A program made the translations under genes and the position numbers. The notes beneath the pieces are model-generated. The model had not been told where the DNA came from. It did no database searches and saw only the letters and a program-made list of their open reading frames with translations. A stretch of 32,420 nucleotides of DNA, taken from assembly GCA_009712185.1 (NCBI GenBank), contig WASQ01000021.1, positions 1-32,420 of the forward strand, written 5' to 3'. Shown here piece by piece: positions 8,459 to 16,344 of the stretch. The stretch comes from Telmatospirillum sp. (GTDB lineage: Bacteria > Pseudomonadota > Alphaproteobacteria > Rhodospirillales > Magnetospirillaceae). The number at the start of each line of letters is the position of its first letter. The first letter of the stretch is position 1.

Positions 8459-9430
8459 TCAGAAGGGCGTTTCCCACCCGACGAGACAGATCACCCCCTC
8501 GGCCGTCACCAGAGACTTCAGGGCCGCCATATGCTCGTCCGGCGGCGGAGACTGGTCGACAAAGGCATAGCGCCGCCCAAGCTGACGGTATTTCGACTCC
8601 CCGAGACGGTGGAACGGCAGGATATTGACCGCGTCCAATCCGATGCTTTTGATGAAACGCACGGTCGCCAGAAGATTTTCCGTGCCGTCGTTCAGGCCGG
8701 GGATAATGGGAATCCGGGGCATGATGACACCATCCCAGTCAGGCAGCGCCGCCAGACGGGCGATATTGGTCAACAGCAGGGTATTGTCCTGTCCGGTCAG
8801 GCGGTGGTGGACGGCGGGATCCATATGCTTGATGTCGGTGAACACCCAGTCCACCGACCGCATGACGTCGAGATAGTAATCCGTCGGCAGGCAGGATGTG
8901 GTTTCCACCCCCACATGCATGCCATGGCGCTTGCATTCGGCCAGGACCGCGGTGATGAAGCTCCGTTGCAGCAGCGGCTCGCCGCCGCTGAAGGTCACGC
9001 CGCCGTGCTTCCCCCAGTATTGCTGGTCGCGCAGCAAAATCCGCATCAGTTCGTCTTGCGTGTAATAACGGCCGCTGGTGACACTGGCCTCATTCAGGCA
9101 GGCCGTCACGCAATCGAATGTCTCGCAGTCGTCGCAAAGGCTGCGATCATGGGTCAGTTTTCCGTCGACCACGCGCGCCGCGCCATGCGGACAGGCGCGG
9201 ATGCAGTCTCCGCAACATTTGCATTTGCTTTCCCGGTACATCATGACCGGATGGCGGAACAACCCTTCCGGATTGCAGCACCAGACGCACTGCAAGGGAC
9301 AGCCGCTCATAAAAACGGTCGTGCGGGTTCCCGGCCCGTCGTGGACGGAATGGCCCTGAATATCGAAAATCAGCCCGCCTTCCGTCTGGCGCGGTTCCCC
9401 GGCCGGGGCGATGCGGCTTTGTGTCGTCAT
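8459..9430 (-). CDS. hpdA: 4-hydroxyphenylacetate decarboxylase activating enzyme (radical SAM)
   Basis: A 323-residue glycyl-radical-enzyme activase. It uses reduced [4Fe-4S] and S-adenosylmethionine to abstract hydrogen from the partner glycine. The radical SAM motif is Cys44-x3-Cys48-x2-Cys51 (SGCPLQCVWC). A cysteine-rich insertion carries two ferredoxin-like cluster motifs: Cys70-Cys80 (CKCCGDCIRACP) and Cys99-Cys111 (CDDCETFDCVTAC). GGVTFSGGEPLLQ and the FHRLGESK segment near residue 285 are family features; the latter I recall also from clostridial HpdA. The ATG at 9430 follows AAGGAAG. It is the last gene of hpdB-hpdC-MFS-hpdA, separated from the transporter gene by a 93-bp spacer holding a large hairpin. 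Partner assignment rests on linkage and similarity. Confidence 0.9.
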   Translation of the reverse strand: MTTQSRIAPAGEPRQTEGGLIFDIQGHSVHDGPGTRTTVFMSGCPLQCVWCCNPEGLFRHPVMMYRESKCKCCGDCIRACPHGAARVVDGKLTHDRSLCDDCETFDCVTACLNEASVTSGRYYTQDELMRILLRDQQYWGKHGGVTFSGGEPLLQRSFITAVLAECKRHGMHVGVETTSCLPTDYYLDVMRSVDWVFTDIKHMDPAVHHRLTGQDNTLLLTNIARLAALPDWDGVIMPRIPIIPGLNDGTENLLATVRFIKSIGLDAVNILPFHRLGESKYRQLGRRYAFVDQSPPPDEHMAALKSLVTAEGVICLVGWETPF

Positions 9431-9476
9431 TCCAACTTCCTTTCGGACCGGGCGGCCCGACTTCGGTTCAGAGAAC

Positions 9477-9510
9477 CCCGGCGGACGGGCGCGGGTGCCC
9501 GCCCGCCGGG
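9477..9510. repeat. Long GC hairpin between the MFS gene and hpdA
   Basis: A 14-bp stem with one mismatch (9477-9490 with 9497-9510; core CCCGGCGG) closes on a 6-base loop, 14 bp after the transporter stop codon. No T-run follows on the minus strand. It is likely an mRNA-stability or attenuating element inside the operon. Confidence 0.65.
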
Positions 9511-9523
9511 AGGATCGACCCCG

Positions 9524-14152: not shown

Positions 14153-14379
14153 CTTATTATTGGTCATATCGACGGTTTCTCCAGAAAAAACTCATGAAGA
14201 ATATCGGACTGACCCACCATTTTTATTTTTTCAATTTATACAATGCTGCCCTTGCACGGGTGTCACGGCGGTAAACACTCCGGCCAGAAAGAGGTCCTTT
14301 TCGGAGACACTTTCCGCAGCGCAATAATGAAGGTTATTCTTAGAACAACGGAACTCTCCCTTCCTGGCGCCGAGAAATG

Positions 14380-14393
14380 TTGATTTATTTCAA
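14380..14393. promoter_or_regulatory. FNR/FixK-like palindrome
   Basis: TTGAT-TTAT-TTCAA differs from the FNR consensus TTGAT-N4-ATCAA at one position. Anaerobic control would make sense for an oxygen-sensitive glycyl-radical system. No -10 sequence at the expected distance is obvious, so the call is tentative. Confidence 0.35.
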
Positions 14394-14757
14394 TAACGGT
14401 TCCTTCCGTGTCCCTGGTCCGGTGGCGCAAGACTCCCGAACGGAAGAGCATGTGATTTGCGCTATTTAATAACTAAAAATTCCGTCAAAAAAATCACGAC
14501 TCATACTTATCGTGAATAAAAACGAACTCATACCCATCACAAAAATCATTTTATATAAATTATGGAATCATGATCTGTTTTGAGACATAATCACCCCCGT
14601 CCTCAGGGCGACACCTGTGGATTTTTACTTTTTAAAATGAACAATCATAAAGTGAAAACCAGATAACATCCGCTTAACAACGGATAATTATCTTACAACG
14701 TCGCCACACAAGACATGGCATTCATCAGAATTAATGATCGCTGGTGGGAGACAGGCC

Positions 14758-16344
14758 ATGACTCAAAAATCAGAAGATCAAACACTCATCGGACGATTTC
14801 ACGTACCGAATAAGATATTTCATATAAAAAATAGACAAGACACTGAGGATATAATCGGCGATGCATCCTCATATTCAAGGCAGATAAATAACATCCGAAT
14901 TGAAAAAAGCAGCACAAGAAAAAAAGATGACAATAGTCTTATAGAAGGAATTTTTTCCAGCGAGCGATCCTACATCGACTTCCTGAAAAAGGTTGTCGAC
15001 TATGTTGCCTGCGGTCTCCAGGTCGTCAACAAGGAAGGGGTTCTGGTCTATATCAACGACAGCTTCGAAGAAGTTCACGGCGTCCGCCGGGACGAGGTAA
15101 TCGGCCGGCATGTCACCGGCATCATCGACAACACGCGCATGCATGTGGTTGCCCACACCGGCATCCCCGAATATGACCGGGTTCAGAATATCAAGGGCAT
15201 TCCCTATGTCGTGTCACGCATCCCGATCTTCGAGGAAGAGGAATGCGTGGGCGCGGTCGGCATCATCCGGTTCCGCTACCTGGACGAGGTCAAACATCTG
15301 ACCGACGACATCAAGCGCCTTCAGAAGCAGATCCAGTCCATGCGCAAGGACAACCATCTCGCGGCCAACACGGAATACAGCTTCCGGGACATCGTCAGCG
15401 CGTCCGAGACCATGGCCGGCGTCAAAGACCAGGCCATGCAGGCTGCCGCGACCGATGCAACCGTGTTGTTACGGGGGGAATCGGGCGTCGGCAAGGAGGT
15501 GTTCGCGCACAGCATTCACAATCTCAGCCAACGCCGTGACGGCCCCTTTGTCCGGGTCAATTGTTGCGCGCTGCAGGAAAATCTCGTCGAGTCGGAATTG
15601 TTCGGCTATGAGGATGGCGCCTTCACGGGCGCCCGCAAGGGCGGCCACAAAGGCAAGTTCGAGCAGGCTGACGGCGGCACCATTTTCCTCGACGAAATCG
15701 GCGACATGCCCCTCTCGGCGCAATCGAAGCTTCTGAGGGTCATTCAGGACCGGGCCGTGGACCGCCTGGGCAGCGAACGGCGGAACCGGGTCGATGTCCG
15801 GATCATCGCCGCCACCAACAGCAACCTGGAGGCCCGCGTCCGGGACGGCAGCTTCCGCGAGGACCTCTACTACCGCCTCGACGTCATCCCGATCGTCATC
15901 CCATCGCTTCGGCAGGTGCCGGAGGACATCCCGATCCTCGCCCGGACCCTTTGGGACAAACTGTCCAAACGCCATGGCATTTTTCACAAGCGTCTGATGC
16001 CATCGGCCTATGCGGCCATGCAGCGCCAGCCCTGGAAAGGCAATGTGCGGGAATTACAAAATGTGCTGGAACGGGTGTTGATCATGGCGCGGTCCTCCCA
16101 GGTCGGCGAGGAGGATCTGCGGCATGTCCTGTTGCATGGCGGCACCAGCAACGATCTGATGGACCTCGATGCCGATGGCGGCACGACCCTCGAGAAACTG
16201 GTGGAACGGACCGAACAACGGGCAATCCGGTACGCGTTGGCGGTCATGGAGGGGAACAGGTCCGCGGCCGCCCGTCTCCTCGGTATTTCGCGCCCGCTGT
16301 TTTACAAAAAGCTCTCCCGCTACGGGCTGGGCGGAAAGACGTGA
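14758..16344 (+). CDS. Sigma-54-dependent activator: PAS, AAA+ and Fis-type HTH domains
   Basis: A 528-residue enhancer-binding protein, most likely the activator of hpdBC. The first 70 residues are a polar extension of unknown function encoded by AT-rich DNA. A PAS domain spans about 75-185 ([31 protein letters not shown]). A short coiled linker leads to the AAA+ domain, with Walker A GESGVGKE (240-247), the sigma-54 contact loop GAFTGA (287-292) and Walker [12 protein letters not shown] (306-316). The C-terminal Fis-type HTH ([20 protein letters not shown]) is at about 499-524. The ATG at 14758 is preferred over 14734 because GGGAG lies seven bases before it. There is no receiver domain, so the signal is probably sensed directly by PAS. 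The effector is unknown; 4-hydroxyphenylacetate is a reasonable guess. Confidence 0.9.

What the first reader, a model, noticed from the sequence alone, without database searches (positions are those of the whole stretch)
8459..16344. Complete 4-hydroxyphenylacetate decarboxylase operon with sigma-54 control in an alphaproteobacterium
hpdB, hpdC and hpdA are all present, plus a transporter and a divergent PAS-type sigma-54 activator. The host markers on both sides are clearly alphaproteobacterial. Known HPAD systems are, to my knowledge, from clostridia and a few other anaerobes, and lack this transporter-inside, sigma-54-driven layout. It predicts p-cresol formation by an environmental, facultatively anaerobic alphaproteobacterium.
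Basis: partly seen in the sequence, partly recalled or inferred. Interest (0 to 1): 0.88.

Follow-up and report, generated by a model that had tools for sequence, protein, structure and literature searches.

The report
Horizontally acquired p-cresol-forming decarboxylase gene block
An alphaproteobacterium carries, inserted between two ordinary genes, a complete gene block also found in a sulfate-reducing bacterium that should let it turn the tyrosine product 4-hydroxyphenylacetate into p-cresol without oxygen; the enzyme type is known, but its presence here, its own regulator and transporter, and its stripped-down iron-sulfur subunit make open questions about it testable.

Summary
hpdB, hpdC, an MFS transporter and hpdA lie in that order on the minus strand (13901-8459), with a divergent PAS/sigma-54 activator (14734-16344), in an alphaproteobacterial contig. 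HpdB is a firm 4-hydroxyphenylacetate decarboxylase (HPAD) large subunit: 1558 bits, cut-off 1150 (indoleacetate decarboxylase model: 652), active site kept. Its nearest kin are two Desulfovibrionaceae (85-86% identity). The block was acquired: in 7 of 14 relatives searched ubiX and pfk are neighbours, 33-178 bp between aligned parts, against 9 kb here; the insert repeats, in order, six genes of a Solidesulfovibrio MAG contig. Only the own genome of 317 in the order has a hit over the cut-off. Not found in print by my searches: a -24/-12 sigma-54 site before hpdB, present in 5 of 8 loci with a divergent activator, and an HpdC without any of the four N-terminal cluster ligands (12 of 79 HpdCs, Tannerella among them; no intermediates). 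p-Cresol formation itself is inferred.

The parts
11187..13901 (-). hpdB, 4-hydroxyphenylacetate decarboxylase large (glycyl radical) subunit, 904 aa
   Evidence: NF033715 1558 bits vs cut-off 1150; PDB 2y8n_A 1026 bits; R228, S349, G350, F410, C508, E510, H541, E642, G879
10927..11184 (-). hpdC, small iron-sulfur subunit, 85 aa, one-cluster type
   Evidence: NF033716 71 bits vs cut-off 50; four C-terminal Cys kept, all four N-terminal ligands absent
9524..10834 (-). MFS transporter, putative 4-hydroxyphenylacetate importer
   Evidence: PF07690; best NCBIfam models L-lactate MFS transporter 117 bits and oxalate/formate antiport family 42 bits, both under cut-off; between hpdC and hpdA in 32 of 81 loci
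8459..9430 (-). hpdA, radical SAM activating enzyme with two ferredoxin-type Cys sets
   Evidence: NF033717 368 bits, under cut-off 420; CX3CX2C at residue 44, CX2CX2CX3C at 70, CX2CX4CX3C at 99
14734..16344 (+). PAS / sigma-54 AAA+ / Fis-HTH activator, divergent from hpdB
   Evidence: GAFTGA at residue 295, Walker A at 248; 72% identity to the divergent activator of L044
13979..13995 (-). -24/-12 sigma-54 promoter-like site TTGGCACG-CCTT-GTGTA, 94 to 78 bases before the hpdB ATG (-12 half is GT rather than GC)
   Evidence: 2 mismatches of 13; reached in 3 of 300 and 1 of 200 resampled sequences; in the scan of 78 upstream regions a site with 3 or fewer mismatches 64-94 bases upstream was found in the window, L044, L047-L052 and L088
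14108..14133 (-). direct repeat of TGTCACTCCTGG, candidate activator-binding half-sites
   Evidence: matches at -232 and -218 from the ATG; the exact palindrome TGTCAC-N5-GTGACA stands at -336/-337 in L044/L048, only imperfect here
16371..17267 (-). trypsin-like protein of unknown role, part of the inserted block (start chosen at a Met; the open frame runs to 17528)
   Evidence: 57% identical homologue convergent to the activator in L044, the only proper match among the loci held; PF13365 23.1 bits, under cut-off 27.6
8417..17334 (.). insert between convergent ubiX (7784-8416) and pfk (17335-18450); exact junctions not resolved
   Evidence: ubiX and pfk adjacent, 33-178 bp between aligned segments, in 7 of 14 relatives searched
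8434..8462 (+). copy of a dispersed repeat at one end of the five-gene block
   Evidence: 49 matches in the own genome at up to 3 mismatches, 0 in the reversed-pattern control
16346..16374 (+). copy of the same repeat after the activator
10835..10926 (-). intercistronic RNA hairpin between hpdC and the transporter gene
   Evidence: -56.4 kcal/mol, z -6.2; at the same place in L044 -45.1, z -3.5; no terminator-like match there

Best explanation
The block is a self-contained 4-hydroxyphenylacetate decarboxylation cassette acquired by horizontal transfer. The MFS protein brings in 4-hydroxyphenylacetate; HpdA, a radical SAM enzyme, puts the glycyl radical on Gly879 of HpdB; the radical passes to Cys508, and with Glu510 and Glu642 the enzyme oxidises the substrate and releases CO2, giving p-cresol, which leaves the cell. 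HpdC supports HpdB with one [4Fe-4S] cluster instead of two. The divergent PAS activator turns on hpdBC-mfs-hpdA from a sigma-54 promoter, probably in response to the substrate. Shown by sequence: gene identity, active site, loss of the N-terminal ligands of HpdC, promoter-like site, insertion, shared block. Inferred: activity, substrate of the transporter, ligand and target of the activator, and the benefit (consumption of a cytoplasmic proton, proton gradient).
For: HpdB scores 1558 bits on the HPAD model against 652 on indoleacetate decarboxylase. Of nine active-site residues listed for HPAD in PMC4979209 (passage), eight are identical; the ninth, Gly532, is Ser as in 75 of 82 HpdB rows. 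hpdC and hpdA are in the same operon. Tree: beside Desulfovibrionaceae HpdB, support 100, inside a 13-row set (100) that holds Tannerella forsythia. -24/-12 site in 5 of 8 loci with a divergent activator, window included; RpoN present. ubiX and pfk adjacent without the block in 7 of 14 relatives; six genes in the same order in L044. Family over cut-off in 1 of 317 genomes of the order, 1 of 61 near relatives and 1 of 398 drawn from the phylum, each time the own genome.
Against: No activity or expression data. HpdA is under its model's cut-off (so are three others tested). The -12 half of the promoter is not canonical; a strict GG/GC scan found nothing near the consensus in the window; L045, L075 and L076 have a divergent activator but no good site; the sites of L044 and L048 alone are not beyond chance (56 and 40 of 300 resamples). 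The enhancer palindrome is imperfect in the window. 4-mer composition of the insert is host-like (0.154 from the flank; pieces of the flank 0.119-0.156 from the rest) and far from the L044 block (0.299), so a recent transfer from a bacterium like L044 is unlikely. In G400, same genus, ubiX and pfk lie about 72 kb apart on one contig, so their adjacency is not universal.
Confidence: 0.78

Rival explanations
1. The enzyme is a glycyl radical decarboxylase for another arylacetate (phenylacetate, indoleacetate, 3,4-dihydroxyphenylacetate or a plant phenolic), with p-cresol a side product.
For: The physiological role of such decarboxylases is stated to be unknown (PMC13285125, passage); a divergent relative with HpdC in L004 has lost the His and the Glu of the HPAD phenol site, so the family does seem to change substrate.
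Against: His541 and Glu642 are kept, as in 81 of 82 rows; indoleacetate decarboxylase lacks this Glu and has no small subunit beside it (PMC6181972, passages); HPAD model ahead by about 900 bits. 3,4-Dihydroxyphenylacetate is not excluded.
Confidence: 0.12
2. The contig is a chimera or a misbinned piece of a sulfate reducer.
For: The genome is a 153-contig assembly with 3% contamination; none of the 80 nearest HpdB loci kept is named as an alphaproteobacterium (records very near the own genome may be left out there).
Against: Host genes on both sides (TrcR, an acetyl-CoA-synthetase-like gene, ubiX; pfk, purK, pntB); copies of a repeat that occurs 47 more times in this genome at both ends of the five-gene block; host-like 4-mer composition. 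The repeat's absence from L044, L048 and the relatives' stretches is too little sequence to count.
Confidence: 0.04
3. The activator does not control hpdB, or senses something else (its best named model is PrdR), and the operon runs from a housekeeping promoter as in C. difficile.
For: In C. difficile the sigma-54-like site before hpdB is not used and a sigma-A promoter is (PMC7925072, passages); PrdR model 428 bits, under cut-off 795; 3 of 8 loci with a divergent activator lack the site.
Against: Divergent placement kept in L044, L045, L048, L052, L075, L076, L088; site in 5 of 8 such loci, window included; sigma-70-like sites in the region no more than in shuffles (3 found, mean 3.1).
Confidence: 0.2

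Closest known systems
4-Hydroxyphenylacetate decarboxylase HpdBCA of Clostridium scatologenes / Clostridioides difficile
   Same: hpdB, hpdC, hpdA in this order; radical and catalytic residues; HpdB 52% identity to the aligned part of the solved C. scatologenes enzyme (2y8n)
   Different: HpdC here lacks the N-terminal cluster ligands; a transporter gene lies between hpdC and hpdA; the C. difficile operon is sigma-A driven with an unknown regulator (PMC7925072, passages)
HPAD locus of Tannerella forsythia (L054) and Bacteroidales relatives (L053, L056)
   Same: One-cluster HpdC, MFS between hpdC and hpdA, same HpdB set; T. forsythia HpdB 71% identity
   Different: No divergent sigma-54 activator within 2.5 kb of L053 or L054; L056 holds only 71 bases upstream
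HPAD loci of Solidesulfovibrio sp. MAG (L044) and Nitratidesulfovibrio liaohensis (L048)
   Same: Same gene order with the divergent activator; 85-86% (HpdB), 75-76% (HpdC), 76-80% (MFS), 67-71% (HpdA), 67-72% (activator) identity; L044 also has the trypsin-like gene
   Different: Other neighbours (flagellar genes beside L048); exact enhancer palindrome, imperfect in the window; no trypsin-like homologue found in L048
HPAD cluster of Olsenella scatoligenes
   Same: MFS gene in the HPAD cluster, proposed there to import arylacetates (PMC6181972, passages)
   Different: Known to me here only from print; no sigma-54 activator in the passages read

Membership tests
4-hydroxyphenylacetate decarboxylase (HPAD) | Large subunit over the curated equivalog cut-off | tested here: met
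   1558 vs 1150 bits
4-hydroxyphenylacetate decarboxylase (HPAD) | Glycyl radical loop, Cys-Glu dyad, His and Glu of the phenol site | tested here: met
   G879, C508/E510, H541, E642; Cys and Glu roles from PMC4979209 and PMC6181972 passages; that the His contacts the hydroxyl is recalled
4-hydroxyphenylacetate decarboxylase (HPAD) | Iron-sulfur small subunit encoded beside hpdB | tested here: met
   NF033716 71 vs 50 bits
4-hydroxyphenylacetate decarboxylase (HPAD) | Dedicated radical SAM activase with ferredoxin-like domain | tested here: inconclusive
   Motifs present; best model NF033717 but 368 bits, under its 420 cut-off; HpdAs of T. forsythia, L044 and L049 also under it
4-hydroxyphenylacetate decarboxylase (HPAD) | Placement inside the HPAD tree | tested here: met
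   Support 100 with Desulfovibrionaceae, 100 with the 13-row set; quick tree, outgroup one divergent relative, no indole- or phenylacetate decarboxylase rows
4-hydroxyphenylacetate decarboxylase (HPAD) | Forms p-cresol from 4-hydroxyphenylacetate | not testable with these tools
   needs an anoxic assay
Clostridial subtype of HPAD (two-cluster HpdC) | Ligands of both [4Fe-4S] clusters in HpdC | tested here: not met
   Y/T/D/P in place of H/C/C/C at the N-terminal ligands; C-terminal four Cys kept. Not taken as defining for the whole family, since T. forsythia HpdC lacks them too
Indoleacetate decarboxylase | Model score over cut-off; no small subunit; no second Glu | tested here: not met
   652 vs 1100 bits; HpdC present; E642 present
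Phenylacetate decarboxylase PhdB / arylacetate decarboxylase AAD | Closer to these than to HPAD | tested here: inconclusive
   Solved chain 7e7l, named hydroxyphenylacetic acid decarboxylase, 245 bits against 1026 for HPAD 2y8n; that 7e7l is AAD is recalled; no PhdB sequence was compared

The most novel reading that the evidence does not exclude
The window holds a mobile, self-sufficient decarboxylation cassette: a substrate-sensing sigma-54 activator, an importer, a one-cluster glycyl radical decarboxylase and its activase, passed between sulfate reducers and an alphaproteobacterium, which gives its host a 4-hydroxyphenylacetate-induced proton-consuming reaction and supplies the kind of regulator and importer that are still unknown for p-cresol formation in C. 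difficile. The all-or-none loss of the N-terminal HpdC cluster marks a functionally distinct HPAD class.
Probability: 0.3. Interest if true: 0.62.

Novelty: new member of a known kind. Interest (0 to 1): 0.45.

Why it matters
p-Cresol formation from tyrosine is described as a trait of certain strict anaerobes (PMC13285125, abstract). The block shows how it can sit as one inserted unit in an alphaproteobacterium. It offers a candidate regulator and a candidate importer for 4-hydroxyphenylacetate, both called unknown for C. difficile (PMC7925072, passages), that can be tested in harmless laboratory hosts. The function of the HPAD small subunit is called unknown or unconfirmed (PMC12358834, passages); the natural set of 12 one-cluster against 67 two-cluster HpdCs allows that role to be dissected.

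Tried and rejected
Strict sigma-54 scan with GG and GC required: nothing near the consensus in the window; the looser consensus found the site, and a scan of the 78 of 82 upstream regions that were long enough followed (there the start codon is chosen by rule, so offsets of L044 and L048 differ). Structure prediction of HpdC with 18 rows gave mean pLDDT 48 and says nothing; no fold search was run. Viral contigs: no relative. Plasmid records: 138 with a match, all under 60% identity; the 20 listed are 26-28% identical. Benzoyl-CoA reductase in the own genome: the two PF06050 hits are nearer to 2-hydroxyacyl-CoA dehydratases, so no route for p-cresol breakdown was shown; p-cresol methylhydroxylase was not searched. 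Indolepyruvate ferredoxin oxidoreductase: three weak matches, none over the cut-off, so no internal source of 4-hydroxyphenylacetate was shown. One origin of one-cluster HpdCs: holding their 12 HpdBs as one clade is rejected (p-AU 0.000375; 3 changes on the tree), but the group was named after the tree was seen and hpdC may have moved apart from hpdB. Repeat as insertion mechanism: it is dispersed in the genome (49 matches) and not seen in the seven empty sites, so it only ties the contig to this genome. Papers: no paper of the library holds 'hydroxyphenylacetate decarboxylase' and 'alphaproteobacteria' (matched anywhere in a word, matched at word starts, could have missed '4-hydroxyphenylacetate'). 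Of 13 papers with '4-hydroxyphenylacetate decarboxylase' and 'Desulfovibrio' none has either term in the title, and I read passages of three (PMC6181972, PMC4979209, PMC12358834). A search for the enzyme name with sigma-54 or Desulfovibrio terms listed 10 of 155 papers, none of the ten naming the enzyme. Other searches. Papers seen as passages: PMC6181972, PMC13285125, PMC4979209, PMC7925072, PMC12590467, PMC12358834; none was read whole. Yu et al. 2006 was seen only as a reference; that the T. forsythia enzyme is active is recalled.
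Full report
WHAT IS THERE. On the minus strand hpdB (13901-11187), hpdC (11184-10927), an MFS gene (10834-9524) and hpdA (9430-8459) follow each other; 2 bases lie between the hpdB and hpdC frames, and 92 and 93 bases between the next genes. On the plus strand a 536-residue activator (14734-16344) is divergent from hpdB across 832 bases of 46% GC. Model scores: HpdB 1558 bits (cut-off 1150), HpdC 71 (50), HpdA 368 (420, not reached), activator best on PrdR, 428 (795, not reached).

WHICH DECARBOXYLASE. HpdB matches the solved C. 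scatologenes HPAD (2y8n) at 1026 bits and the next glycyl radical enzyme at 278. Of the nine active-site residues given for HPAD in PMC4979209 (passage), eight are identical (Arg228, Ser349, Gly350, Phe410, Cys508, Glu510, His541, Glu642 in window numbering); Gly532 is Ser537 here, as in 75 of 82 HpdB rows. Glu642 is the residue by which HPAD differs from indoleacetate decarboxylase (PMC6181972, passages). The radical Gly is 879.

THE SMALL SUBUNIT. The alignment holds 79 HpdC sequences: the window and 78 of 81 related loci (L101, L112 and L113 gave none; L101 and L112 are cut soon after hpdB). The four C-terminal Cys are kept in 79 of 79. The four N-terminal ligands are all kept (His or Cys) in 67 and all absent in 12, with no intermediate. 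The 12 are the window, L044, L045, L048-L054, L056 and L073, and include Tannerella forsythia. In their place stand Tyr or Phe, Thr or Ser, Asp, and Pro or Asp. [quoted passage not shown] Ligand positions are counted on C. difficile HpdC (4, 7, 20, 34 and 43, 46, 60, 78); that these are the ligands in the crystal structure is recalled.

KIN AND LAYOUT. In genome contigs 195 stretches encode a relative and the best 80 were kept. Nearest are a Solidesulfovibrio MAG (86%) and Nitratidesulfovibrio liaohensis (85%); then Bacteroidetes and other MAGs (72-76%), Crenobacter and Craterilacuibacter (71%), T. forsythia (71%). The tree of 82 rows (quick method, SH-aLRT) puts the window beside the two Desulfovibrionaceae with support 100. 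Of 81 related loci (80 and L004), 75 have hpdA downstream, 34 an MFS gene downstream, 32 of them between hpdC and hpdA; 68 hold more than 3.5 kb upstream, and 7 loci have a divergent sigma-54 activator within 2.5 kb; some contigs end early, so these are lower bounds. The layout thus recurs in public genomes, and the transporter in the cluster is in print for Olsenella (PMC6181972, passages).

ACQUISITION. In 7 of 14 relatives searched, one of the same genus and six of the same family, ubiX and pfk are convergent neighbours with 104, 99, 139, 35, 33, 61 and 178 bases between the aligned segments; in the window about 9.0 kb separate them. In five of the seven the acetyl-CoA-synthetase-like gene also lies on the far side of ubiX, as in the window. 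The other seven relatives: ubiX and pfk on different contigs in four (G399, G163, G412, G414), about 72 kb apart on one contig in G400, no proper pfk match in G415, neither gene in G179. The insert holds a sixth gene (16371-about 17267, weak trypsin-like match) whose only proper homologue among the loci held is in L044, next to and convergent with the activator, as here. The block of six genes is thus shared in order. The insert's 4-mer composition is host-like, so the transfer is old, or the donor had a like composition; the direction is inferred from rarity (1 of 317 in the order over cut-off) and the empty site. Two copies of a dispersed repeat, 49 matches in this genome and none in the reversed control, stand at the ends of the five-gene block and tie the contig to this genome.

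CONTROL. The genome has one RpoN match. Upstream of hpdB the best match to TTGGCACG-N4-TTGCW is TTGGCACGCCTTGTGTA, 94 bases before the ATG, 2 mismatches, reached in 3 of 300 and 1 of 200 resampled sequences. In a scan of the 160 bases before hpdB in 78 loci, window included, 13 have a site with 3 or fewer mismatches; nine of these lie 64-94 bases upstream (window, L044, L047-L052, L088) and the other four elsewhere (L062, L080, L098, L105). Of eight loci with a divergent activator five have the site (window, L044, L048, L052, L088) and three do not (L045, L075, L076). Taken alone those of L044 (56 of 300) and L048 (40 of 300) are not beyond chance. One-cluster loci L045, L053, L054 and L073 lack a good site. 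L044 and L048 carry an exact TGTCAC-N5-GTGACA palindrome at -336 and -337; the window has only TGTCACTCCTGG twice in direct repeat and weaker matches. In C. difficile a like site is not used, and regulator and importer are unknown (PMC7925072, passages). A strong hairpin between hpdC and the transporter gene (-56 kcal/mol, z -6.2), also in L044 (z -3.5), could leave more hpdBC than mfs-hpdA message; the gap before hpdA is less marked (z -1.9; L044 -0.6). This is inference.

HOW IT WORKS. Import, activation, radical decarboxylation to p-cresol, and release, switched on through the sigma-54 activator. The benefit is open; a proton-gradient role has been proposed for such enzymes (PMC13285125, passage). 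The own genome's only other glycyl radical enzyme found is a pyruvate formate-lyase, which fits anaerobic life but does not prove it.

VERDICT. A real, complete HPAD block; a new member of a known kind in a host class where my searches found no other, with variant features shared with its kin (one-cluster HpdC, sigma-54 activator) that deserve experiment. 

Noticed in passing
L004 (G166), 1471-5371: An hpdB-hpdC-hpdA-like set in another class of the same phylum whose large subunit (1060 bits, under the HPAD cut-off; 826 on the indoleacetate model, also under) has Gly and Trp in place of His and Glu of the HPAD phenol site: a candidate small-subunit decarboxylase with another substrate.
   Followed up: partly
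L160 (G000:C118), about 1.6-13.7 kb: Own genome: a 2-hydroxyacyl-CoA dehydratase pair (best models under cut-off), activase, CoA-transferase-like, electron transfer flavoprotein, nickel-pincer isomerase and acyl-CoA ligase genes in one cluster, like the reductive fermentation of amino acid derived hydroxy acids.
   Followed up: partly
window 8434-8462 and 16346-16374, and 47 other places in G000: A dispersed, partly palindromic repeat (core CGGTTCCGATCAGC...GGCTGGTATCAG), 49 matches in the genome.
   Followed up: partly
L107, L117: Contigs binned as Methanomicrobiales archaea carry hpdB, hpdC and hpdA; misbinning not checked.
   Followed up: no
L092: Citrobacter amalonaticus carries hpdBCA with a two-cluster HpdC inside the clostridial part of the tree, on a long branch; no like DNA in 5,426 E. 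coli genomes at megablast sensitivity.
   Followed up: partly
G179 (same genus as the window's genome): A 0.9 Mb genome listed as 100% complete in a genus whose other genomes searched are 5.7-7.1 Mb, perhaps a reduced symbiont.
   Followed up: no
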